Assembly: GCA_019454045.1 (NCBI GenBank)
Contig: SKCR01034823.1
Location: 1-64,000 of the forward strand
DNA: 64,000 nucleotides
Direction of reading: 5' to 3'
From: Zanthoxylum bungeanum
Lineage: Eukaryota; Streptophyta; Magnoliopsida; Sapindales; Rutaceae
Below are positions 16,541-59,500 of this stretch, in pieces; the first letter of the stretch is position 1; the number at the start of each line of letters is the position of its first letter. The notes beneath the pieces are model-generated. The model ran no database searches and was not told the origin of the DNA. It saw nothing but the letters and a program-made list of their open reading frames with translations. A program made the position numbers and the translations under genes.

Positions 16541-17446
16541 ATTATCTGTCTGTTTGCTAAGTTTACTTTGGATCCCTACTAATCAAACAAATTCATTGTT
16601 GAATGAGATTTGTTCGATGAGTTAATTTCCTATATTACCATTGGAAGGAAAAAACCATCTAAAATGTTATATATCAATGAAATATAATATCGATTAACTT
16701 TTAAAATCTCTTATATTTTAGTTCAAAGTGATTTCAAGATAAAGTCGAATAGAATCTAATTTTTGTTGGAAAATATTAAATCAAAGTTATTGATAGTATC
16801 CATTTAAAGTATGATATTTTAATATTATAGATGATATATATTTTGTTTTTTAAAATATAGAAAAGAAAACTCCCACAAGTTCCTTTATTGCTTGATATTG
16901 GTATTAAACTCCCCCAACTAGCTGACAATATACTATGGAAAGGAGAGGGTGGGACCACCAATAGGTGGAGTCCACGTGGTCCAAATTGGCAAATTGTTAA
17001 ATTTATTTATAAAAGATAAGAAATTGAAAAATGAAAAATGAAAAGAAAAGAGGAAGCTTGGTGTTTGATTGACGCGTTCCAAAGATTCACCCTCCCCGAT
17101 TGGCCCGGCGCCTCTGGACTGGATCTGTGAAAAAGAGTCAACGCTATTGATGGGAGTTATGGCCGACTGACTTTGTGGGGGCCACTGATATGCCGAAATT
17201 TTGAATAGTGCCACGTAGGACTAGTTCCATTTCTATTTTACCTACAATATCGGGTTGACTCCGTCACTGCTTAAAGACCGAATCCCTTGGCCTTACTAGG
17301 CTTTATTTGTCCACGCTACACAAAATTTTAACCACAATAATTTTTTTTTACCGCAAAATTTATATTCTTATAAGGGAAAATTGTCACTTTCCATATGTCT
17401 ATATCATCTACCATTTATTTTTCTACTTTTATTATAATACCTTAAT
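16541..17446. other. Unassigned, non-coding sequence before the first MITE
   Basis: I see no supported gene or repeat structure. Short open frames on both strands lack recognisable domains. Confidence 0.35.
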
Positions 17447-17932
17447 TAGGGATGGTAAAACGAATCAACAATCGAATTTGTATCGAATCATAAACGAATC
17501 GATTCAAAATATGATGGATTCGTATTCGATTCGTTTATTAAACGAATCCTAATATCAAGATTCGTTTTCGATTAGTTTATTAAATGAATCAAATACTAAT
17601 ATTCGTTTAGTTTTGATTTTAGTCAATAACATAATATACTATTTATTCACATTAATTTTTCATAAATATATACATATAAAATATGTAATTAATATATTTA
17701 CTAAAAATATCTCACCAAATATCCACAATATTATTTTTTTTTTTATGGTAATTAGTCATAATTTCTTGAATCTTAATTGAAAATAATAATAACTAGTAAA
17801 AGAAAATAATAAAACGAATCATAAACGAATAAACGAATCAATGAGCTTAAATTCGTATTCGATTCGTTTAACAAACGAATCGAATCAAATTGACCCATTT
17901 ATTAAACGAATCTATTTTCTCAAACCCGTATT
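17447..17932 (+). mobile_element. hAT-like MITE, left part (split by element H)
   Basis: Starts TAGGGATGGTAAAACGAATC and aligns with the complete copy at 52367-52922. The other end is at 39306-39368 (ends TTGCCACCCTA). Flanking 8-mers are ACCTTAAT (17439-17446) and ACCTCAAT (39369-39376), 7 of 8 identical, as expected for a hAT 8-bp target duplication. The interior is full of ACGAATC in both orientations. It encodes no transposase, so it is non-autonomous. Confidence 0.82.
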
Positions 17933-43106: not shown

Positions 43107-43994
43107 TGACCGCGTAATCACACACGTTTAACGCAAGCGCACGTATCGTTCAAGTAGTATAAAAAGATATCGATCCCACGAGGACTTATTACCTATTCTA
43201 TCAATTTTATGAGGTCAAGTTATTACTAATATCTAACAAGTTGTTTGATTGTTTAGAAAGATGATGATTCTAAATTTAAAACAAGTAAAAGAAATTGAGA
43301 GTAGATTAATGAGAATTAAAAATATCTAGGGTTGTGAATTTTTCCAATATTAATTAAAAGATGAAGTAGTTAAATCATAGTTGGGTAAAATATGAATTAT
43401 TAATCTGGAACACTAAATTATGTAAAAGCCTCTTCCGATGGTCATTTACAAATACCTAGAATAATCAAATTGAACCATATGTCTATGTCAATTAAATTAC
43501 CTGGATTCATTAAGATTGAATTCCAATTATGATTACCCCCTCCCAACAGGTAGATTCCTATCCTGTAAGGAAATCTATTAAAGGTTTATCTATCCGTAAA
43601 GAAGATTGTGGGTTGTTGAGTATAAGGTCTTTAAACTTAAAATCCCTATGTCTAGTTCATTTTAAGTTTTATCTAATCAATTTTTAATGGCCAGTTAATA
43701 AAAAGGCATTAAGATTATGACTCAACAAATAACTCTTTAAATTACCCAAACTATAATCTAACTCTTTTTAAAACCGTGATATTAGATTTTATCACAACCC
43801 AAGATATTTAACTTAGTTTACAACACATAGCTAAAATTGATAAAAACTTAAAAGACATAAAGTGAAATTGCTGAAAAGTAATTGTAGAATAATAATTTGC
43901 AATAAAATGAAATGAAATGCTAAGGCAAAGAATTAACTTCTACTATTTACTATTTAGATATCTCCCAATAATATATATATAATCTTGTGATTTT

Positions 43995-44180
43995 TAAACC
44001 AACCGTCTAGAATGGCGGTATCCTCATTAAGTCAATATTCAAATATACCAGCCATAAGGCGGAATAGTAAAATAAATTTAAACCAACCGTCCAGAATGGC
44101 GGTATCCTCATTAAGTCAGGTTTAAACCAGATTAATTTGAATTACCTACCGTCCAGTATGGCGGTATCCTTTATTAATTC
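43995..44180. repeat. Threefold repeat in the LTR of C
   Basis: ACCGTCCAGAATGGCGGTAT followed by CCTCATTAAGTCA occurs at about 43999-44034, 44084-44118 and (diverged) 44147-44180. Confidence 0.8.
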
Positions 44181-44608
44181 AGATTTTAAATAGTTTATAT
44201 ATTATATTTTAAGGGAGATTAATCTAAATAGCAAAAGTAAAAGTATTACCTTATTACCTCAGCATAGAGAAGTTACCTCCTCATGGATGAATAAAACTAC
44301 TATTTATATAAGAAAATTACTACTACAAACTTAAATAAAACTGAACAAAAGAAACTAAAGAAGAGAACTCTCAATTTTATATATGAAATTTCAGAGGAAG
44401 TGGTACATCAAAACTTAAGAAATTCAAATCTATTTATAGGAAAAAAAAACTAATTTTTTATTATTATTTTTCTGATTTTTTATTATTTTATTATTTTATT
44501 ATTATTTTTTTGGATCGCTGAATCTTCGACACGTGGCATGGTGGCTAACAAAGACGGCTCTATGAATTTTTGACATGTGGCATGGTGGTGCAATTACCAA
44601 AATACCAT

Positions 44609-44840
44609 CGGTGTCGGGACGCCCAAGATTACCAAAATACCATTTTTGCCAAATTTCACAGTTTTGCTCCAAATCACCTCCAGAATGTCCTGAAATTTTA
44701 TTTCGGTGTCGGGATGCCCAAAATTACCAAAATACCCTTTGTCTCGGGACGCCCAAATTACCAAAATACCCTTTTTGCCAAATTTCACCAAATTTCACAG
44801 TTTTCTTCAAATCACCTCCAAAATGTCCTGAAACTTTATT
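44609..44840. repeat. Duplicated ~95-bp block in the LTR of C
   Basis: GGTGTCGGGACGCCCAAGAT, then TTACCAAAATACC, GCCAAATTTCAC and CAAATCACCTCCA...TGTCCTGAAA. It is present fully at 44609-44703, partly at 44704-44741 and again at 44742-44840. Confidence 0.8.
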
Positions 44841-44947
44841 TATCTACAAAATAACACAAAACACATCAAAATATTCACAAAACTCAAGAAACTATATAAA
44901 TATTAAGTTAAATGAGTGGGAAATAGTGATAGTTTTACCACTCATCA

Positions 44948-44958
44948 CACCCCCAAAC
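44948..44958 (-). other. Polypurine tract of element C
   Basis: In element sense GTTTGGGGGTG directly before the 3' LTR. Confidence 0.85.
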
Positions 44959-46546
44959 CTAACATTTTGCTAGTCCTCGAGCAAAAAAAATAAAATAACA
45001 TAATAAAATTTAACTAAGCCACTTTCGTAGGGATCACGATTGCATTTAGCATATGCAACAAGCCTTTAAACCCCTAGGTGTCCCTAGTGGACGAGTTATA
45101 GTCTCGTGAGGGTTTACAGCAATGATACCCACAAACATTTTAAAAGTAAAAAGTAGTGAAACTAATGCACACAAAAGCAAAAATACAAGAGAAAAGAGAA
45201 TAAAGAAGTTAGTGACTAATTAGGTGAAACTTCTACTCCAAGTTTAGTAGTTGTTTTATTTCATTCTAAATTATTAATAAGTAAATTCTCCGATTATATT
45301 TACCATTTTCTTATATACTTAGCTAACAAAGTATTATACAACTCATTTTTGCCCACAACAGTCATAAGAACAGTTGATAAGAGAGTAATATTTTTGTCTA
45401 AATTTCTATCAGATTTCACACCTTTTTGTAGTAATGGAATAAATTTTCTGATTTTTTTTTTATTTTTCTTTGATTTTTTCTCTATTTTTTATTTATATAC
45501 AATACCTTCCATCTATGTAGCGAGCTTTGGGTCGGTGGCTCCCAAACCAGATGGCTTTAGGGCAGAGGTGTTAAAACACCCCTACGGACTTAATTACCCA
45601 GACTTCAGATATAAATATATATATTTTTATTTTTATTTTTCATCATTTTTGATCCATATAGCGAGCTTTGGGTCAATGACTCCCAAACCAGTTGGTTTTA
45701 GGGTACTAGGTGTTAAAACACCCTTACAGACTTAATAACTCGGATTTCAGATGAATTTTTTTTTATTCCATCACTTTTTTTTTGAAATGCTTCTTCTCCA
45801 ATTAAACTATAGTACTGAATATTACAATCTTTTCAATCTTAGCTCATGTCTGTATTTTACCATGAATGTTGATAATACCTGCCAACTAAGCATACGAAGA
45901 TCTATTTAAGTCAGTTTTATGGAGAATTTACAAATTAAATAATTGAAAAGGAAATAAACGAAAATTAACTTTTGTTTCGAAAAATGGGTTTGAAATACGT
46001 CTCAGGAGTGGAATTCCTTACACAGTATTCTTACCAATTCCATCTTTTTAGTCAACAAACATAAACATAAAGAAATAACTCTACTACTGGTCATGGTGTG
46101 TGACTAACTGTCGAATGGACTTCCCGTTGTAGATTCCCCAGAGGAAGGTGGAGCGAAGCTCTCTTAAATACCCAAGCCTCTTAGGCTCTTATCGCTTGGT
46201 GTCAGGAATAAACAACGAGTCCTCCAAACTAGTCTATCACACAGCAGCTACGGTGAATGATTATCTAGGTGCCTTCACAGCTTTTCCTTATAAAGAGGTA
46301 GTAAGTGAAGAAAGACACCAAACCATCACCTAGCTTAAATATGCCTCTTTTTTTTTTTTTTGAAATTTTTTTAATTTTTTTTGTATTTTTCGAAAAATTT
46401 TGGACTAAAAATAAAAACACAATAAAACAAGATACTATTAACTATTCCTCACCCCAAATCTAAATGAGACATTGTCCCCAATGTCTTAAACAATAGAAGA
46501 AGAGTTTAAAAGATAATACCTGATTAGCTGAAATTCTACAGGAAAA
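44959..46546 (-). other. 3' untranslated region of element C
   Basis: AT-rich with no gene. It holds two ~93-bp direct repeats (45518-45610 and 45659-45752) sharing TAGCGAGCTTTGGGT and CTCCCAAACCAG, a T14 run (46348-46361), and an ACATTGGGGACAATGTC motif in element sense near 46468-46485. From memory, this last motif is typical of the 3' region of plant gypsy elements, so retrotransposon sequence resumes within ~60-80 bp of the LOG stop codon. Confidence 0.7.
45518..45752. repeat. Direct repeat pair in the 3' region of C
   Basis: Copies at 45518-45610 and 45659-45752, about 85% alike by eye, separated by an AT-rich 48-bp spacer. Confidence 0.8.
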
Positions 46547-47197
46547 TTAAAGATTAAGATCCAGATTTATTCGACGCTTCTTACCACGATCATCTTCAGA
46601 CCATTTTATCTTTGAAATGATAGGATCAATTTGTGGTTCAAAAGCCAAGATTTGGTCAAACAAATCCTGGGCAGTTCTAGCAGTGAAGAGGAGTTCCTTA
46701 AGAGGTTTTGTCACGAATCCATTTCTCCCGGCATCCTCAAGAAACACACAAAGAAAATCATAAAATCCATCAACATTATACAGCCCAATTGGTTTCTGGT
46801 GTATGTTCAAGTTCGCCCAAGATAGCACTATGAAAATTTCCTCCAATGTGCCCAAGCCTCTGGCAAAGCAATAAAAGCATCAGCACGGTTAATCATTTCT
46901 ACCAGTCGTTCAGACATACCTGCACAATTAGTTCTTCTCCTTTGATGGTCCAATAAGATTTGCCTCTGCCAAAGGTTTTGGTATGATTCCCAAAACTGAA
47001 CTGCCTCTATCATGTACAGCCTTTGAAATGGTCCCCATAAGTCCAAGATTGCCTCCGCCATATATTAAGTGCATATTCTTTTCAGCCATGACTCGACCCA
47101 ATTCTTGTGCTGCCTCTATGTATTGTGGATTAGTACCAACACTAGTACCACAAAACACACAGATGTTTTCAACTCGTCTTCTTGAAGTGGCTTCCAT
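46547..47197 (-). pseudogene. Intronless LOG-type gene (cytokinin riboside 5'-monophosphate phosphoribohydrolase) inside gypsy element C
   Basis: LOG enzymes release active free-base cytokinins from their nucleotides. This copy is about 217 codons long, the usual length, from ATG 47197 to TAA 46547-46549. Motifs in order: ICVFCGTSVGTNPQY (N-terminus), LIYGGGNLGLMGTISKAVHD (nucleotide binding), LGIIPKPLAEANLIG, MSERLVEMINRADAFIALP, the PGGxGTxxE catalytic region near 46845-46865, then GTLEEIFIVLSWANLNIHQKPIGL in two overlapping pieces, and a basic end (GKKRRINLDLNL). Plant LOG genes are multi-exonic, but no intron interrupts this copy, so it derives from spliced mRNA. Three breaks, each explained by one missing base, lie near 46940, 46920 and 46858 (inside the PGG motif); no other stop is present. 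Splice-acceptor-like CAG sequences precede it (47251-47253 and 47282-47284). It is dead as read, but intact if the three gaps are sequencing errors. Confidence is high on family, moderate on function. Confidence 0.9.
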
Positions 47198-47302
47198 TTT
47201 TTAACTCTGGATGTCTCCAAACGTGCAATGATGAATTGAATTTATAGAACCTGAAAAGGGTGAGTATAATAGCACTAGTACCTGCCAGATGACAATTATT
47301 AG

Positions 47303-47995
47303 TTAAACAGTAAAATAAATCATGATAGTCAAAAAGGTCTGGATCTTGTCGGAGAAAATAAAAGAAAACAACAAAATAATTACAATTATTAGGAAAAAAA
47401 ACAAAGAGATATAATATGTACAAAAAAGTAACGGCTTGATTGACATCAATGTGTCAGGGACAAGCTTCCCGTCCAATTTTCTTATAATTGGCAAACAGGG
47501 TCTTTTTGAGTCAGATTCCCAAGACTTAACTGTTGTCTTTTCTTTTTGAAATTGTGTGTGTAATTTGTGAATGGCTATATGAACATATCCACTGGAATGC
47601 GTCTCAAGAGTCGAAGATATGTCATCTGCAGACTCCTTACTCAAGCCATCCCTAATGAATTTAATTTTATCTTCACGATTATCAGACACCATTCCTAAAG
47701 AACGACAACGAGAATTACAATTCCAACGTGCACATTTGAAACAAACACCCTTTTTTAGTTCTACTACGTTTCTTTGCATAGGTGCTTCTTCCAAAACCAG
47801 GTAAGTAAGAATTACAAGTCTCAGAATACTCACCTGCAAATCGGACCTGTGCTTCGATCACCCAACGAATGTCATTAGGAATACCATGGATTGTCAGTAG
47901 TCTCATACGTTCCAAGCGAGCTTTGTAAACTTTGATCAGAGAATTTTGAGGGAGAGAAGGAAATTGCTTGTGAAGATTTGCGAGAACTTCTTCCA
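47303..47995 (-). pseudogene. Unrecognised cysteine-rich reading frame upstream of the LOG copy in element C
   Basis: Not recognised. ATG at 47995 opens MEEVLANLHKQFPSLPQNSL; the frame runs to KKRSRTKKG near 47745, then shifts by one in an A/G run and continues as CFKCARWNCNSRC (CX2CX4CX3C, near 47710-47750). The sequence then reads CRSLGMVSDNREDKIKF, SSGYVHIAIHKLH and IRKLDGKLVPD to about 47460. After that it becomes T-rich and hydrophobic, probably untranslated or intronic. It begins ~60-140 bp after the pol stop, behind TTAATTTTTGCAG (acceptor end near 48013). This is where Athila-type elements keep an env-like or extra gene expressed by splicing. It could be such an extra ORF or a second captured host fragment. 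Confidence 0.55.
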
Positions 47996-48012
47996 TCCTG
48001 AAATGTCTTGAT

Positions 48013-48132: not shown

Positions 48133-51100
48133 TTATGCTGAATCTGAAAGTGTGACACTATCTTTTTGTCGCTCCAACGGTTCTCCCCAGTAGTGCTTGA
48201 CACGCTGACTGTTAACTTTGAATGTGTTGTTGGTGATGGGATCCAGTAACTCACACAGCTCCATATGGTAAAACCTGAGTGATCACAATGGACCTGACCA
48301 CTTTGATTTCAACTTTCCAGGAAAAGTTTCAACCTCGAATTATATAACAACACCTGTTGCCTTGGTTTCAACTGTCTGTGCACTATTTTAGGTCATGCCA
48401 TTTCTTGGTCTTTTCTTTGTATAATTTAGCATTCTCATAAGCTGTAGGCGAAATTCCTCCAATTCATTGACTTGGTGAAGTCGTTTCTTTCTGCAGCTTG
48501 TGGCTCAAAATTCAACTTCTTCAGTGCCCAGTATGCCTTGTGTTCAAGTTCAACTGGCAGATGGCATGCTTTCCCAAACACCAATTGATATGGGGACATA
48601 CAAATGGGTGTCTTGTAAGCTGTACGGTAGGCCCATAATGCATCATCCAGTTTTGTAGACCAGTCCCTCCTTGTTGATCCAACGGTTCTTTCCAAGATTC
48701 TTTTGATTTCCCTGTTTGAAACTTCAACTTGCCCATTTGACTGTGGATGGTAGGCTGTGGTAACTTTGTGAGTAACTCCGTATTTAGATAGGAGTGCATC
48801 AAAATATTGTTGCAGAAATGTGTGCCTCCATCACTATAATTGCTCGAGGTGTTCCGAAGCAGTGAAAATATTCTTCTTCAAGAATTTGACCACCACTTTT
48901 GAATCATTGGATGGTAGTGCAATTGCTTCAACCCATTTTGAGACGTAATCTACAGCAACCATGATGTACAGATTTCCAAATGATGGAATAAAGGGTCCCA
49001 TAAAATCAATTCCCCACACATCGAATATCTCTACTTCCAGAATATTTTGCAATGGTCCTTCATTTCTCCTCGAAATATTTCCCATTCTCTGACACCTGTC
49101 ACATTGAAGAACAAATAAGTGAGCATCTTTAAAAAGAGTGGGCCAGAACAAACCTGATTGAAAGACTTTAGCTCCAGTTTTATTCCCACTGAAGTGTCCG
49201 CCGTTTGGTGATGAATGACAGTGTTGCAAAACACTGTTGACCTCTTCCTGTGGAACACATCGTCTTAGTAATTGATCAGCACATCTTTTGAACAGGTATG
49301 GCTCATCCATCCCAGACATAATGTTTGACTTATTGAAGAATTTCTTCCGTTGCTGAGTTGTCCATTCCAACGACCATTTTCCTGACACTATGTAATTGAC
49401 ATAGTCAGCATACCAAGGGACTTCCTGCTGTTTTATGGTAAACAGCTGTTCATCAGGAAAAGTTTCTTTTTGAGAAATTCTTTGCCAGCTGTTTCTCCAT
49501 TCTCGAGCCATGATAGATGATCTGCCACTGGATTTTCTGTCCCTTTCCTGTCTCTGATCTCCACATCGAATTCTTGCAGAAGAAGTATCCAACGGATCAA
49601 TCTGGGTTTGGCATCTTTCTTCGCGATCAAGTATTTGATTGCTGAATGATCTGTGTAGACCACCACTTTGGGACCCAGAGATAAGAGCGGAATTTGTCAA
49701 AAGCGAACACAACTGCAAGCAATTCCTTTTCAGTGGTTGTGTAGTTGAGTTAAGCTTCATTCAAAGTTCTGCTGGAGTAGTAAATGGTGTGGAATATCTT
49801 TGCTTTGCGTTGTCCCAAAATTGCACCTACAGCAAAATCACTAGCATCACACATTACCTCAAATGGAAGGGTCCAATCTGGTGTAACTATGATGGGGGCA
49901 GAGATCAGCTTCTGTTTTAAGATCTCAAAAGCATCCTGGCATTCTTTGGTGAAGTTGAAAGACACATCCTTTTCCAGAAGATTGCAAAGAGGTTTTTGCA
50001 ATTTTGGAAAAGTCTTTGATAAATCTCCTATAAAAACCTGCATGTCCAAGAAAACTCCGAATTCCTTTGACTGATGTTGGTGGAGGTAGTTTTTCAATTG
50101 TCTCGATCTTTGCTTTATCTACCTCGATTCCCTTTTGTGAGATGCGGTGTCCAAGAACTATGCCTTCATGTACCATAAAGTGGCATTTCTCCCAATTAAG
50201 TATCAGGTTTGTATCTTCACATCTTTGTAATACTTGTCTCAAATTTAACAACAATGATCAAAGAATCTCCAAACACAGAAAAGTCATCCATGAAAACCTC
50301 CATACTCTGCTCCAGCATGTCTGAGAAGATGGCCATCATGCAACGCTGAAATGTGGCAGGGGCATTACATAATCCAAATGGCATTCTGCGGAAAGCAAAA
50401 GTACCATAGGGACATGTAAATGTGGTTTTCTCCTGATCTTCTGGGGCGATGGCAATCTGATTGTATCCTGAATAACCATCTAAAAAACAATAGAACTCAT
50501 GTCCCGCCAATTTGTCCAGCATCTGATCAATGAATGGCAGTGGAAAATGATCATTCCTCGTGGCTTTGTTCAGCTTTCTGTAGTCCATACATACTCTCCA
50601 TCCAGTCACCGTTCTTGTTGGGATTAGTTCATTCTTTTCATTGGTAACCATAGTATTCCTCCTTTCTTTCTTCGGCACACACTGCATAGGACTCACCCAA
50701 CTGCTGTCTGATATGGGGTAAATGATGCCAGCATCCAACATTTGATGATTTCTTTCTTCACAACTTCCTTCATGATTGGATTGAGTCTCCGTTGATGTTC
50801 CACTGTGGGTTTATACTCATCGTTCATCAGGATCTTGTGCATGCAGAATGATGGACTAATTCCTCGAATGTCTGCTATAGTCCGCCAATGGCTTTCTTGT
50901 TCTCTCGTACACTCTCAACAACTTTTCTTCCTGCTCCAATGTTAGAGAAGATGAAATAATAACAGGTAATTCAGAAGATTTTCCAAGAAATGCATACCTG
51001 AGATGACTCGGAAGTAATTTCAACTCCAACTGTGGTGGTTCTTCAATTGAAGGCTTGATCCGGTCTTTCTTTTGGTAGTTCCAAACTTTCAATTGGTTGT

Positions 51101-53968
51101 GTCACTTTGAAAGAAATGGCCTGTCAAGATAGTTGATACATTCCAGAATTTCAGCATCTAACTCAGTTTCAGTCATGTTGGTGATGCAAGCTTCAAGTTT
51201 ATCTGTAGGAGCTGTATTAGTATCATGAATGATACTATCAACAACATCAATTCTGAAACATTCCTCCTCTTTTTCTTCACTCGGGAATTTCATGACTTTG
51301 AAAACATTGAAGGTAACTTCTTGGTCCTGAACTTTCATGGTCAGTTCTCCTTTTTGTACATCAATCACAGTTCGACTTGTTGCTAAGAATGGTCTCCCAA
51401 GGATAATTGCCACATCTTTGTCTTCATCCATGTCAAGGATAATGAAGTCTGCTGGAAGAATGAGTTTATCAACTTTGACCAGCACATCTTCAATGACTCC
51501 TCTCGGAAATGCGAGCGTTCGATCAGCGAGTTGCAGTGAGACTGAAGTAGGCATTGCTTCTCCAATTTGCAGTTTCCTGTAAATAGAAAAAAGGCATTAA
51601 ATTAACACTTGCACCTAAATCACATAAAGCCTTACCGAAGTTATTTTCTCCTATGATCAAGGAATGGTGAAACTTCCAGGATCCTTCAACTTTGGGGGAA
51701 GTTTTCTTTGAATGATGGCGCTGCATTCTTCTGATAATGCTAATGTCTCATAATCTCCCAATCTCCATTTTCGTGAAAGAATGTCTTTCATGAATTTAGT
51801 ATAGCTGGGCATTTGTTCCAAAGCTTTTGCAAAAGGGATGTTGATGTGCAGCTTTTTGAAAACCTCCAAGAATCGAGCAAACTGCTTGTCTAGTTTACTT
51901 TCTGAAGACGCTGAGGAAAGGTGGAGGTGGAGTGATCTGTTCTTTTTCCTTTGCTTCTTTTTTTCCTTTGCTTCTTTTCCTTTGCTTCTTTTTCCTCCAT
52001 CTGTTTCTCTGTTTCTTTTGGAACATCTTCAACGGTTGCCTTGATTCCAACATCTTTGTTGATTTCAGTACCACTTTTCAAAGTAATGGCTTGACATTGC
52101 TCATTTCCTCGGTTCCTTGGATTTGGTTCTGTATTGCTGGGAAGATTTCTTGTTGGTCTGTAACTCTGTGCATTGGCCAGTTGTCCAATTTGATTCTCCA
52201 ATGCTTTGATGGAAGCAGATTGGCTTTGAAATATAGCATCATATGCTGCTTGTTGCTTTTTGAACATCTCTGCAATCCAATCTTTCATTTCTGGGTCTTT
52301 TTCAAACTCTTGGCTTTTGTTCTGTTGCTGGAATCTAGGTGGTGGATAGTTCTTTTGCCCTGAATTTAGGGCTGTCAAAACAAATCAACGAATCGAATTC
52401 GTATCGAATCATAAACGAATCGAATCAAAATATGATGGATTCGTATTCGATTCGTTTATTAAACGAATCCTAATATCAGGATTCGTATTCGATTCGTTTA
52501 TTAAACGAATCGAATACGAATATTCGTTTATTCGTTTAGTGAATAATATTATTTAATAAAATAATCTATCATACTTGATTTACATTAATTCTTCTTCATA
52601 AATATATACATATGAAATATGTAATTAATATATTACTAAAAATTACTTCACCAAATATTGAAAATATTACTTTTTCTATGATAATAGCTATAATTTCTCG
52701 AATCTTAATGAAAATTAACAATAACTAGTAAATAAAAATAATAAAACGAATCCTAAACGAATAAACAAATCAATGAGCTTAAATTCGTATTCGATTCGTT
52801 TAATAAACGAATCAATCGAATTGATCCATTTATTAAACGAATCCATTTTTTCAAACCCGTATTCGCTTTAAAGCGAATCGAATCGAACGAATAAACGAAT
52901 CCTGCCCCAAATTGCCACCCTACCTGAATAATTGCTCCATGAAAATTGGGATGATTCCTCCACCCGGATTGTAGGTGTTGGAATATGGATTGTTTCCTTG
53001 TCTGTTGAAATTGTTGACATAATTCACCGTTTCTTCAAGTTGATTTTTATGTGCTTCTCCATATGGTGAATTTGTTGTTCCAATATTACTTTGCATGCCG
53101 AGAGTTCCATAAATTTGCATATTTGATCCAGTTTGATACTGACTGCTGAATTGGCTCCAACTTCATAAATTCCAGCAATTCGTGAATCATGCTCCTTTCT
53201 GTTGGCCACAAGGAATTGTTGTTGGCCATTTCTTCGATTAGGTCCCAAGCTTGATGGTTCTCCTTTTGCCATTAATGCTCCTCCAGCAGCAGCATCAATT
53301 GTGGTTCTCATTAGTCCAGAAAGTCCATTATAGAATGTTTGGACTTGAAGCCATTTTGGAATCTCATGGTGAGGACATTTCCGGAGCAAATCTTTGTACC
53401 TTTCCCAAACTTCGTTGAGAGTTTCCGATTCTTGTTGTACAAGGATGTGATGTCATTCCTCGGCTTTCCAGTTCTCGCTGGTGGAAAGTACTTTGCAAGA
53501 AATTTGGTGGCTAAAGTGTTCCAAGTTCTGATAGGACTGCTGGAAGTGAATGTAGCCAAGCTTTAGCTCTGTCTTTCAAGGAGTATGGAAAAACACGCAG
53601 TCTCATTGCTTCTTCAGCTTCTCGGTTGTAATTGAAAGTGCCGCAAACTTCCAGGAAGTTGCTGATGTGGGTATTAGGATCTTCAGTTGCTTTTCCCTAA
53701 ATTGCACTGATTGCTGAATCATCTGAACGCAAGTTTTAATGTCGCCTGCATTTGCTGGTAAAGGAGGAAGTACAATACATGAAATGAGGCCATCTACCAC
53801 CGGAATGGTTCTGTCTCGAATGGGAATTGGTGGTGCAATCTCCAAAGGTTAAGGTTCCATGTTAACAATTGCTTCTTGGACTTGTCGCCTTTCCCTTCTC
53901 AATTGTCTGATGGTTCTTTCAATTTCTGGGTCAAGCGATCGTAGTTCAAAGCTTCTGGTTCGTCTCAT
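48133..53968 (-). pseudogene. gag-pol of Athila-like gypsy element C, broken
   Basis: Starts at 53968 (MRRTRSFELRSLDPEIERTI), with an early in-frame stop near 53850. Gag follows to about 51900, including a Q/K/E-rich part (QAAYDAIFQSQSASIKALEN) split by a MITE at 52367-52922. Protease motif DLGASVNLMP is near 51620-51650 and the AIILGRPFLATSR segment near 51375-51415. Reverse transcriptase is 50217-50800 (KLNKATRNDHFPLPFID, MPFGLCNAPATFQRCM, FMDDFSVFGDS). RNase H is about 49430-50090 ([32 protein letters not shown]). Integrase is about 48435-49300 with HHCC residues ([19 protein letters not shown]), [14 protein letters not shown] and [12 protein letters not shown]; its C-terminus ends at TAA 48133-48135. 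Most breaks are single-base frame changes rather than stops. Not functional as read. Confidence 0.92.
52367..52922 (+). mobile_element. Complete hAT-like MITE inserted in gag of element C
   Basis: 556 bp, TAGGGCTGTCAAAACAAATC to AAATTGCCACCCTA, with terminal inverted repeats TAGGGNTG. Flanked by 8-mers CCTGAATT (52359-52366) and CCTGAATA (52923-52930), 7 of 8 alike. The interior repeats AAACGAAT/ATTCGTTT, including 21-bp palindromes built on GATTCGTTTA and TAAACGAATC. It is the same family as 17447/39368 and shows that copy's uninterrupted form. Confidence 0.87.
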
Positions 53969-54076: not shown

Positions 54077-54094
54077 TCCCCGGCAACGGCGCCA
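54077..54094 (-). other. Primer-binding site of element C (tRNA-Asp type)
   Basis: In element sense TGGCGCCGTTGCCGGGGA, six bases inside the LTR. From memory this is the usual site of Athila and Tat gypsy elements. Confidence 0.87.
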
Positions 54095-54100
54095 AAAAAT

Positions 54101-54579
54101 TGACCGGCGTAATCACACACGTTTAACGCAAGCGCACGTATCGTTCAAGTAGTATAAAAAGATATCGATCCCACGAGGACTTATTACCTATTCTATCAAT
54201 TTTATGAGGTCAAGTTATTACTAATATCTAACAAGTTTTTGATTGTTTAGAAAAGATGATGATTCTAAATTAAACAATAAAGAAATTAAGAGTAGATTTA
54301 TGGAATTAAAACTATAAGGGTTGTGAATTTTTCCAATATTAATTAAAAGATGAAGTAGTTAAAAAATATAGTTGGGTAAAATATTGAATTATTAATCTGG
54401 AACACTAAATTATGTAAAGCCTCTTCGATGGTCATTACAAATACCTAGAATAATCAATTGAACCATATGTCTATGTCAATTAAATTACCTAGATTCATTA
54501 AGATTGAATTCCAATTATGATTACCCCCGCCCAACAGTAGATTCCTATCCTGTAAGGAAATCTATTAAAGGTTTTATCT
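54101..54579 (-). repeat. 5' LTR of element C, inner 479 bp
   Basis: TGACCGGCGTAATCACACAC; matches the start of 43107-44947. It stops at AGGTTTTATCT, where element D begins; the intact LTR continues there with ATCCGTAAAG (about 43592). Confidence 0.9.
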
Positions 54580-56522: not shown

Positions 56523-59500
56523 CTATAGCCAGTCACTCAAGCATCTAACACCTGAACTATGTAATGTGCTTCTCAAACTTTTGCTGTGAAATAGCTTTCG
56601 TCAGCGGGTCTGCAATGTTGTCATCTGATGATGCACCTTCTCGATCTTCACATCGCCACGATGTATGATCTCACGAATCAGATGGAAACGTCGAAGAACA
56701 TGCTTGGATCGTTGATGAGACCGTGGTTCCTTAGCCTGCGCTATAGCCCCGTTATTGTCACACAATAATGGAACGGGCTCAGCTGCTAACGGAACTACTA
56801 CTACTCCTATCCAATTAGGAATTTACGGATCCAAACTGCCTCTTTTGCTGCTTCAGATGCAGCAATATACTCCGCTTCTGTTGTTGAATCGGCAACAGTC
56901 TCTTGCTTGGAAGATTTCCAGCTTACTGCTCCGTTGTTCAAACAAAATATGTACCCGGATTGCGACTTAGAGTCGTCTTTATCGGTTTGGAAACTTGCAT
57001 CGGTATACCCAGTTACCTCAAGTTCTCCATCTCCATAAATCAAGAAAGCATCCTTAGTTCGTCTAAGATACTTAAGGATGTTCTTAACTGCCATCCAGTG
57101 ACCATCACCTGGATCGGCCTGATAGCGACTACACATGCTCAAAGCATACGAGACATCAGGTCGAGTACATATCATGGCATACATGATCGATCCGACTGCC
57201 GAGGCGAACGGTATCCGACTCATGCTATTTCTCTCATCTTGAGTTTTAGGACACATGTCCTTAGATAGAGAGATGCCATGTGACACTGGCAACAGTCCCC
57301 TCTTGGACTGATCCATGTTGAATCTTTTCAACACTTTGTCAATGTACGTACTCTGAGAGAGTCCAAGCAGCTTTCTAGATCTATCCCTGTAGATCTTTAT
57401 TCCTAGAATAAAGGCTGCTTCTCCCAGATCTTTCATGGAGAATTTTAATGAAAGCCAAGCTTTCACCGATGTTAACATGGGAATGTCATTGCCCATAAGC
57501 AATACATCGTCAACATAAAGGACAATGAATGTCAGTGCGCTCCCACTAACCTCTTATATACACAAGGATCATCCTCGTTTTGAATGAAATCATATTCTTT
57601 TATGATCTCATCAAAACGTTGGTTCCATGACCGCGATGCTTGCTTCAGTCCATAAATGGACCGATTTAACTTACAAACCTTGTTTGCAAGTTTAGGCACG
57701 ATAAAACCGTCAGGCTGTTGCATATAAACATCCTCCAAAAGGTTTCCGTTAAGGAAAGCGGTTTTAACGTCCATCTGCCATATCTCGTAATCGAAATATG
57801 CAGCAATAGCAAGCATTATCCGAATGGATTTAATCATGGCAACGGGTGAGAAAGTTTCGTCGTAATCGACACCATGTCGTTGACGATACCCCTTCGCTAC
57901 AAGCCTAGCTTTGTACGTTTGTACGTTGCCTTCCATGTCGGTCTTCTTCTTGAAGATCCATTTGCATCCAATAGGCTTTACGCCTTCTGGTGCATCAACC
58001 AGTGTCCAAACTTGGTTGGTGTACATGGAATCCATTTCGGACTTCATGGCCTCTTGCCATAAAGTGGAATCGATATCTTGTATCGCTTCCTCATACGTAG
58101 CCGGTTCATCTTCCTCAATGAGATTAATATCTACATGAGGTGAGATCAGAAACCCATACCTCTCAGGTTGGTTCCTGACTCTCTCCGACCTACGCGGTCC
58201 TTGTGTAATAGAAGATTGTGGTACAGTCTCATCCCGGATGGACTGTTCTTGTTCCGTTGAGGATTCTATGCCAGGAACAGTATCACTCCGATTTTCATCG
58301 AGTTCTACTTTCCTCCTCCCACTTACCACTGTATTTAGGAATTCCTTCTCAAGAAAACCGCATGTAGAGCAACAAATACTTTGTTCTCTCGTGGGTGATA
58401 GAAGTAATATCCTTTGGTTTCCCTAGGATATCCTACGAATAGGCATTTATCCGATTTGGGTTCAAGTTTGGTACCTTCCAAACGTTTGACGTATGCCCAG
58501 CATCCCCAAATCTTTAGGAATGAGAAACCCGGTTTCTTTCCTGTCCATATCTCATATGGTGTCTGTTGTACAGACTTTGACGGAACCTTATTCAAAATAA
58601 GAACTGCACTGTTTAATGCATATCCCCAGAAGGAAATAGGTAGCTCAGTGCGACTCATCATAGACCTTACCATGTCCAACAGAGTTCGGTTTCTCCGTTC
58701 GGATACACCGTTTAATTGCGGTGTTCCAGGAGGAGTCCACTGTGAAAGAATACCATATTCTTTCAAGTAATCTAGAAACTCATTGCTCAAGTACTCGCCA
58801 CCACGGTCCGACCGTAATGTCTTTATACTCTTGCCGGTCTGTTTTTCAACTTCGTGTCGAAACTCTTTGAATTTCTCAAAAGTTTCCGACTTGTGTCTCA
58901 TAAGATACACATAACCATAACGCGATGCATCATCCGTAAAGGTTACGAAGTATTCGAATCCACCTCTAGCCTGGCTAGACATGGGCCCACAAATGTCACT
59001 ATGAACGAGGGCTAACAGTTCGGTGGCGCGTACACCTTTACCGCTAAAAGGTGATTTAGGCATTTTGCCTAATAAGCAAGATTCGCAGACGTCATATGAA
59101 TTTGGATCAAATCCGTCCAAGTACCACCCACTCTTCGAAAGTGTGGATATGCGAGTCTTGTTAATGTGTCCCAGACGACAATGCCACATGTAAGTCTCAT
59201 CTTTGTTACTTAGTTTGAGCCTTTTGTTTGTTACATTATATGTTTGAGATTGATTTATATTCAAAATATAAAGACCATTATTAGCATCAGCTGAACATAT
59301 CTCAAAATCATCTTTATAAACAAAAACCCAGTGTTTCGGAATACAAAAGTGTACCCGCATTGGGTCAAACAAGATACAGAGATAATATTCCTAGTCAAAC
59401 TAGGTACATAATAACAGTCTGATAGTTTAAGTACATGCCCCGAAGGCAGTTCTAAAACAAAAGTGCCCACGGCCAAAACAGCAACAGGTGTCCCGTTTCC

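What the first reader, a model, noticed from the sequence alone, without database searches (positions are those of the whole stretch)
46547..47197. Cytokinin-activating LOG gene carried inside an LTR retrotransposon
A full-length, intronless LOG-type coding sequence lies on the sense strand of gypsy element C, between the pol stop (48133) and the 3' LTR (44947). Conserved retroelement 3' sequence resumes within 60-80 bp of its stop. No target duplication or adjacent poly-A marks a separate LINE-driven insertion, so capture of spliced mRNA during reverse transcription is the simpler view. If C or its relatives move with it, the element could spread a hormone-activating enzyme gene.
Basis: partly seen in the sequence, partly recalled or inferred. 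Interest (0 to 1): 0.87.

Follow-up and report, generated by a model that had tools for sequence, protein, structure and literature searches.

The report
Cytokinin enzyme gene spread by retrotransposons
A plant hormone-activating enzyme gene of the LOG type sits inside a very abundant family of jumping elements, next to a gene resembling a plant-virus nucleic-acid-binding protein; this copy is broken, but many others are intact and the gene seems to have been kept by selection while it spread.

Summary
A LOG gene does lie between pol and the 3' LTR of an Athila-like Ty3/gypsy element, but its frame is broken here (4 stops). It is no local accident. Of 40 copies listed by a pol probe in this 3.96 Gb genome, 33 of 35 examined carry full-length LOG at that place; two are cut by insertions. 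A LOG3 search scored 150 intronless copies, 145 without internal stop, while a host LOG has introns. dN/dS between LOG lineages is 0.14-0.25; in pol-probe copies, broken ones included, 0.25-0.35. Four elements without recognisable capsid, protease, RT, RNase H or integrase keep an open LOG; two show target duplications. Unexpectedly, a homologue of the carlavirus cysteine-rich nucleic-acid-binding protein precedes LOG, and LOG relatives carry a C-terminal basic + LxLxL (EAR-like) tail (86/120, against 0/120 canonical LOGs). A LOG/YgdH domain in Citrus and Populus Ty3/gypsy elements is already in print; the virus-like partner and LOG-only elements did not turn up in ten searches. Function is inferred.

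The parts
43107..44949 (-). 3' LTR of element C
   Evidence: 43107-43591 matches 54101-54579; ends read from the sequence
44950..44959 (-). purine-rich tract (GGTTTGGGGG) next to the 3' LTR
   Evidence: read; assignment inferred
44960..46546 (-). conserved 3' non-coding part of the element
   Evidence: shared with other copies
46547..47197 (-). LOG gene, frame broken in this copy
   Evidence: PF18306 and PF03641 halves; 4 in-frame stops
47198..47307 (-). LOG 5' flank with a pyrimidine-run + CAGG string and TATAAA
   Evidence: TATAAA in 38 of 38 copies, pyrimidine run + CAGG in 32 of 38; role inferred
47447..47996 (-). remains of a 182-codon gene like the carlavirus cysteine-rich nucleic-acid-binding protein (frame broken here, open in L018)
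48834..49760 (-). integrase part of pol (H2C2; rve weak)
   Evidence: PF17921; PF00665 below its cut-off
49750..50097 (-). RNase H part of pol
   Evidence: PF17919, PF17917
50217..50741 (-). reverse transcriptase part of pol
   Evidence: PF00078
51102..51554 (-). aspartic protease part
   Evidence: PF08284, weak, below its cut-off
51890..53389 (-). gag remains (interrupted by a 556-bp insertion)
   Evidence: ORFs, no Pfam hit for them; gag domain PF03732 in the equivalent ORFs of L013 and L028
54077..54094 (-). primer binding site TGGCGCCGTTGCCGGGGA
   Evidence: read; complementarity to tRNA-Asp is recalled
54101..54579 (-). 5' LTR, truncated at 54579 by the LTR of another element (a Copia one by the RVT_2 matches at 56807-58329)

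Best explanation
LOG is a standing accessory gene of a high-copy Ty3/gypsy (Athila-like) retrotransposon family. It came from a spliced host LOG mRNA (intronlessness shown; an old date inferred) and has since been copied by retrotransposition as part of the element (shown). It has stayed under purifying selection for protein sequence between lineages (shown by dN/dS) and has been exchanged between sub-families by recombination (shown by mosaics). Elements without recognisable capsid, protease, RT, RNase H and integrase still carry it and were moved in trans (structure shown; trans-mobilisation inferred). The protein most likely still has LOG-type phosphoribohydrolase chemistry and raises active cytokinin in cells where the element is transcribed, favouring dividing or meristematic states (inferred; about 0.45). 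The basic + LxLxL tail may send it to the nucleus and to TOPLESS-type corepressors (inferred; about 0.3). The neighbouring virus-like cysteine-rich protein would bind nucleic acid and may weaken RNA silencing of the element (inferred from its viral relatives). The window copy itself is dead.
For: LOG inside element sequence in 20/20 LOG-found copies, with element sequence well past LOG on both sides in 19 (L020 is cut at 47446); in 33 of 35 examined of 40 pol-found places. 145 of 150 scored LOG3 matches have no internal stop and all 150 are contiguous. dN/dS 0.14-0.25 in ten between-lineage pairs; for four of them Fisher p is 1.4e-6 to 4.5e-19, against 0.84-2.14 in the wrong frames; 0.25-0.35 in the pol-probe sample whatever the frame state; 0.14-0.25 in ten pairs of reduced elements. 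Four reduced elements: LTR pairs 96.3-97.7% (93.7% for one segment of L064); target duplications in L062 and L063; open LOG in 4/4; gag capsid, PR, RT, RH, IN and the virus-like gene in 0/4 by tblastn. R98 and E121 both kept in 103/120 relatives. Tail 86/120 versus 0/120. Virus-like gene: PF01623 in 38/42 and PF05515 in 37/42 relatives, best 1.1e-8. Retroelement 5' flank attached to LOG in database relatives P0008 and P0009.
Against: No expression, enzyme or localisation data. H96 and K99 of the canonical MHxRK motif are changed in most relatives (H in 32/120, K in 13/120) and R98 is lost in 14/120, so substrate or activity may have shifted. Many copies are broken: open in 6/20 and 4/18. Close pairs inside the window's sub-family give dN/dS 0.35-0.44 and once 3.26 (L010-L021: 11 non-synonymous, 1 synonymous). 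Young singletons in LOG show weak constraint (63 non-synonymous, 27 synonymous); shared against singleton variants differ only at p 0.07. LOG3-ranked copies are biased to intact ones. The tail is absent from the Xanthoceras LOG proteins listed.
Confidence: 0.72

Rival explanations
1. Passenger: LOG was captured once and merely rides along, with no function for the element; the low dN/dS reflects a few young source copies.
For: Most copies of the window's own sub-family are broken (open 6 of 20), singleton changes are only mildly constrained, and one close pair has dN/dS 3.26.
Against: Between-lineage dN/dS 0.14-0.25 with synonymous divergence up to 1.3-1.7, 0.25-0.27 with broken copies included, and open LOG in elements without recognisable replication genes.
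Confidence: 0.1
2. Repurposed LOG: kept by the element for something other than cytokinin release, for instance as a nuclear protein that recruits corepressors through the LxLxL tail or as a nucleotide-binding regulator of silencing.
For: Tail 86/120 versus 0/120; MHxRK changed in most relatives and R98 lost in 14 of 120; separate from the canonical LOGs sampled, SH-aLRT 96.
Against: R98 in 106/120 and E121 in 117/120 relatives, PGGxGTxxE intact in 99/119, which argues for a kept active site.
Confidence: 0.25
3. Independent LINE-type retroposition of a LOG mRNA into element C.
For: None found beyond the gene being intronless.
Against: Copies sampled with and without regard to LOG have it at the same place.
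Confidence: 0.01
4. The element LOGs are a host-domesticated gene family that provides cytokinin to the plant, so that selection acts through the host.
For: Very many open copies.
Against: Open copies read in full lie between LTRs, two with target duplications; LOG has passed between sub-families; a host LOG with introns exists separately.
Confidence: 0.06

Closest known systems
YgdH/LONELY GUY domain in Citrus and Populus Ty3/gypsy consensus sequences (PMC9289625, passages read; it cites Steinbauerova et al. 2011, which is not held and not seen)
   Same: A LOG-type domain inside plant Ty3/gypsy elements
   Different: The passages I read mention the domain only as a result of a screen; they give no partner gene, tail, selection test or reduced LOG-only elements. 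The cited 2011 paper may say more
Athila retrotransposons of Arabidopsis (PMC2410132, abstract and outline read)
   Same: Recombination among distant lineages; non-autonomous elements that keep intact ORFs under purifying selection
   Different: The abstract does not say which ORFs are kept; it names no host-enzyme cargo
Orchid Ty3/gypsy elements with an AlkB RNA demethylase (PMC9289625, passages read)
   Same: Host-type enzyme gene kept as an extra ORF
   Different: Nested in the Tat family, sister to Ogre; a different enzyme, with a proposed RNA-modification role
Carlavirus cysteine-rich nucleic-acid-binding protein (PF01623, PF05515)
   Same: Profile match over the basic region and Cys cluster of the gene next to LOG
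   Different: Encoded by a retrotransposon; in P0121 the last 60 residues or so lie outside both profile matches
Defective transducing retroviruses (recalled)
   Same: Replication genes lost, a growth-related host gene kept, moved in trans
   Different: Plant element, high copy number, apparently old cargo

Membership tests
LOG cytokinin phosphoribohydrolase | PF03641 domain over its whole length | tested here: met
   P0001 (same protein as open copies L010 and L011) E 5.4e-36; window only in two halves
LOG cytokinin phosphoribohydrolase | PGGxGTxxE and catalytic Arg/Glu | tested here: met
   Relatives: motif 99/119, R98 and E121 together 103/120; broken in the window copy. Role of the residues recalled
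LOG cytokinin phosphoribohydrolase | Releases active cytokinin from its nucleotide | not testable with these tools
   No assay
Canonical plant LOG1/3/8 orthologue | Falls inside the canonical clade | tested here: not met
   38 element-type rows (of 120) and 25 canonical rows (of 120), picked by hand, separate with SH-aLRT 96 (quick method, one long outgroup)
Ty3/gypsy LTR retrotransposon | LTRs, PBS, gag, order RT-RNase H-IN | tested here: met
   gag domain from copies L013 and L028
Athila lineage | No additional RNase H (aRH) as in Tat | tested here: met
   Only one RNase H found in the window ORFs scanned; frames are broken, so weak. Criterion from PMC6317226 passages
Athila lineage | Place in an RT-RH-IN tree | not tested
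   No reference set at hand
Athila lineage | Athila ORF-1 domain PF03078 | tested here: not met
   No hit in the gag and accessory pieces scanned; PMC6317226 says only 16% of Athila elements have it
Carlavirus-type nucleic-acid-binding protein | PF01623/PF05515 match with basic run and Cys cluster | tested here: met
   38/42 and 37/42 at E 0.01; basic run then CxxC in 108/120, C-x2-C-x4-C-x3-C in 99/120; the single L018 copy lies just under both curated cut-offs
Carlavirus-type nucleic-acid-binding protein | Silencing suppression | not testable with these tools
   Described for viral relatives (PMC12172455 passages)
EAR-motif (LxLxL) repressor tail | LxLxL near the C-terminus | tested here: met
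   86/120 versus 0/120; among relatives of 205 aa or more, 78 of 104. TOPLESS binding not tested; the meaning of the motif is recalled

The most novel reading that the evidence does not exclude
A plant retrotransposon lineage carries a two-gene host-manipulation cassette: a plant-RNA-virus-type nucleic-acid-binding protein (silencing and proliferation control) and a hormone-activating LOG enzyme with a nuclear corepressor-recruiting tail. LOG alone is enough to be kept in elements stripped of replication genes, so the element reprogrammes host cells through cytokinin to favour its own spread, a plant counterpart of growth-gene-transducing retroviruses.
Probability: 0.3. Interest if true: 0.93.

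Novelty: new variant of a known kind. Interest (0 to 1): 0.77.

Why it matters
Whether the extra ORFs of plant LTR retrotransposons do anything is an open question; PMC6317226 raises it (passage), and its survey counted only ORFs of 250 codons or more, which would miss both genes here (182 and 217). This family gives a testable case: a known enzyme class, clear between-lineage selection, reduced elements that isolate the gene, and a virus-like partner. It also warns that LOG gene counts in plant genomes can be inflated by element copies, and it suggests a possible link between mobile DNA and cytokinin biology.

Tried and rejected
LINE-type insertion of LOG: rejected (same place in copies sampled with and without regard to LOG). 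LOG-less copies: none found among the 40 copies fetched except two cut by later insertions (L034 by a sequence matching LTRs of the window's other elements; L029 by a sequence unmatched in the window). Relatives in IMG/VR viral contigs for the virus-like gene and for P0001: none confirmed. Fold of the virus-like protein: model poor (pLDDT 63.8, pTM 0.31), so not searched; no convincing solved relative by profile (best E 0.78). Rfam (gathering) and tRNA scans of the window: nothing. LOG identity higher than in neighbouring segments was not used as evidence, because those copies were chosen by LOG. Unbiased sampling of LOG state in the reduced elements: 40 places found with a non-LOG probe, but their LOG letters could not be fetched. 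Alignments made from broken copies can misplace codons near indels; this affects. Dropped rows: L009 (near copy of the window) and L024 (near copy of L023); L044 (copy of L043) and L046 (third lineage). Rows of the tree and loci were picked by hand.

Full report
Observation. The LOG-like sequence is at 46547-47197 on the minus strand. Its halves match Pfam PF18306 and PF03641. Frame 0 is shared by both ends, but four stops lie between; against an open copy the window has three single-base gaps. Length and ends are right, but it is not a working gene. One fetched locus, L009, is 99.9% identical to the window element over 7 kb and may be a second haplotype or a duplicate.

The element. LTRs 43107-44949 and 54101-54579 (the latter truncated), K2P 0.061 over 475 sites. 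The PBS string TGGCGCCGTTGCCGGGGA is at 54077-54094. Protease (weak), RT, RNase H and integrase matches are on the minus strand; the gag domain was recognised in the copies L013 and L028, not in the window's own fragments. The Athila-like label rests on a single RNase H, the PBS and extra genes after pol; I built no RT tree, and the Athila ORF-1 domain was not found.

Family-wide, not a single capture. The window lies in a genome of 3.96 Gb in 51,709 contigs. A LOG DNA search listed 40 places, the scoring limit, of 10,927 first-look candidates. I fetched 20 of them (the best-ranked other than the window itself, 6.5-7 kb each); LOG lies in element sequence in 20 of 20, with element sequence well past it on both sides in 19, L020 being cut at 47446. 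Six of these (L013, L019, L022, L025, L027, L028) lack the RT-to-integrase part yet keep gag, LOG and the virus-like gene or part of it. A probe from the end of pol, chosen without regard to LOG, listed 40 places. Fifteen of them, the window included, pair with a LOG hit at the expected distance. Of the other 25 I fetched 20: LOG is full length in 18; L034 is cut inside LOG by a sequence matching LTRs elsewhere in the window, and L029 is cut before LOG by an unmatched sequence. That is 33 of 35 examined, 5 not examined. An Arabidopsis LOG3 protein search scored 150 of 57,829 candidates: all are contiguous and near full length at 49-52% identity, 145 without internal stop. This ranking favours intact copies, and haplotype duplicates may be counted twice.

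Origin from mRNA. A 42-residue canonical-type C-terminal piece found 18 places up to E 10, 12 of them at E 3.4e-5 or better. One, L065, is a canonical-type LOG locus whose matched parts are separated by introns and whose matched end has no LxLxL; its first part lies outside the 3 kb fetched. The element LOG runs through these junctions without a break.

Selection. Nei-Gojobori dN/dS in ten pairs between LOG lineages or sub-lineages of this genome is 0.14-0.25. For four: 0.24 (L010-L036), 0.19 (L010-L039), 0.21 (L036-L039), 0.19 (L010-L046); Fisher p 3.3e-8, 2.5e-11, 1.4e-6, 4.5e-19; wrong reading frames 0.84-2.14. The 3' non-coding segment gave 0.50-1.72 in arbitrary frames, so values near 0.5 are not by themselves evidence. 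In the pol-probe sample, whatever the frame state: 0.27 between groups (60 pairs), 0.25 and 0.35 within groups (45 and 15 pairs). Against this, close pairs inside the window's own sub-family give 0.35, 0.37, 0.44 and once 3.26 (L010-L021); pooled pN/pS there is 0.43 (19 copies). Singletons look only mildly constrained and shared variants more so, but that contrast alone is p 0.07. This is what one expects if sources are selected and most insertions then decay. The virus-like gene gives 0.20-0.79 in 12 of 13 pairs tried (the thirteenth had no synonymous change), which overlaps the control range.

Reduced elements. Of 12 places picked by hand from the 150 of the LOG3 list, 11 have an open LOG, 4 have the virus-like gene nearby, and in 6 the LTR end and leader lie about 1.7-1.8 kb upstream of LOG. 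Four were then read at 8.8 kb. L062 and L063 are complete, LTR pairs 97.4% and 97.7%, target duplications AATGT and ACAAA. L061 has both LTRs (96.3%) but lies in a tandem arrangement without a target duplication. L064 (96.3%, 93.7% for a second segment) runs off one end of the stretch. LOG is open in 4 of 4; gag capsid, protease, RT, RNase H, integrase and the virus-like gene are found in 0 of 4 (tblastn, E 1e-3), with weak gag-NC similarity in L063 and L064. Among five of the six, ten pairs of open LOG have dN/dS 0.14-0.25 (chosen by protein score, so biased low). A non-LOG probe from such an element again filled the 40-place limit, but the LOG state there could not be read.

Exchange. L046 carries a LOG 72% identical to the window while its neighbouring segments are 89-92%; L019, L022 and L028 carry a virus-like gene at about 82% while their LOG is 97-98%. 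The modules recombine. Recombination between distant Athila lineages, and non-autonomous Athila elements with ORFs under purifying selection, are reported for Arabidopsis (PMC2410132, abstract read).

The neighbour. Between pol and LOG lies a 182-codon gene, broken in the window, open in 3 of 38 nearly complete copies (the 2-kb stretches of L029-L048 do not reach its start, so this undercounts). One open copy scores just under the cut-offs of PF05515 and PF01623; in 42 of the listed relatives the families are hit 37 and 38 times, best 1.1e-8. The 120 listed relatives carry a precomputed PF01623 label. Named hosts include Xanthoceras, Populus, Acer, Rhamnella and Orobanche; Xanthoceras and Populus also appear in the LOG list. 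Viral CRPs of this kind are described as RNA silencing suppressors, and that of chrysanthemum virus B also as a transcription factor causing hyperplasia (PMC12172455 passages).

The tail. Of 120 element-type LOG relatives, some partial, 86 have LxLxL in the last 15 residues and 111 a basic pair in the last 18; of 120 canonical LOGs, 0 and 7; among relatives of 205 aa or more it is 78 of 104. The canonical ones are top hits of a LOG3/LOG8 profile, so other canonical clades may be under-represented. Hand-picked members of the two sets (38 and 25) separate in a quick ML tree, SH-aLRT 96. R98 is kept in 106/120 and E121 in 117/120, but His96 and Lys99 of MHxRK are mostly changed. That LOG sits in elements is shown in this genome; for P0008 and P0009 it is supported by attached retroelement flank; for the rest it is inferred from cluster sizes and from the published Citrus and Populus report.

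Literature. PMC9289625 (passages read) reports the YgdH/LOG domain in Citrus and, with a looser filter, Populus Ty3/gypsy consensus sequences, citing a 2011 paper that is not held. Ten full-text searches were made. Carlavirus + retrotransposon + nucleic acid binding gave one paper (PMC5967125, on viral proteases), judged unrelated from its listing. No search was made for the tail itself. I read listings and selected passages only, in a library that lacks most subscription papers.

Mechanism. Shown: position, intronlessness, mobility with LTRs and target duplications, between-lineage selection, mosaic exchange, LOG kept where replication genes are gone. Inferred: enzymatic activity, cytokinin effect, nuclear role of the tail, silencing-related role of the neighbour, movement in trans, and how LOG is expressed. 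Its 5' flank has TATAAA in 38 of 38 copies and a pyrimidine run + CAGG in 32 of 38, which allows either an internal promoter or splicing.

Noticed in passing
window 47447-47996 (-): Broken copy of a gene homologous to the carlavirus cysteine-rich nucleic-acid-binding protein, between pol and LOG; relatives in several plants.
   Followed up: yes
L061-L064: LTR elements with LOG as the only recognised gene; L061 appears to lie in a tandem arrangement sharing an LTR with a second element.
   Followed up: partly
window 52367-52922 and 17446-17932: About 500-bp repeat, 86% alike, with an inverted-repeat pair inside the first; it interrupts gag in element C and is absent from the six copies that span the place; likely a small DNA transposon.
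   Followed up: no
window 47198-47307 (-): LOG 5' flank has TATAAA in 38 of 38 copies and a pyrimidine run + CAGG in 32 of 38; possible internal promoter or splice acceptor.
   Followed up: partly
L009; L043 and L044: Near-identical pairs (L009 with the window; L043 and L044 identical in the LOG codons compared), perhaps alternative haplotypes in the assembly or recent duplicates.
   Followed up: no
P0156, P0102: Single 90%-identity clusters standing for 566 (virus-like gene) and 81 (LOG) member sequences, suggesting high copy number in other plants.
   Followed up: no
L055:3036-3581 (-), L051:3279-3641 (-): Reduced elements keep a short ORF with a C-x2-C-x3-H-x4-C-like motif (L055) and no Pfam match; perhaps a gag nucleocapsid remnant used for packaging.
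   Followed up: partly
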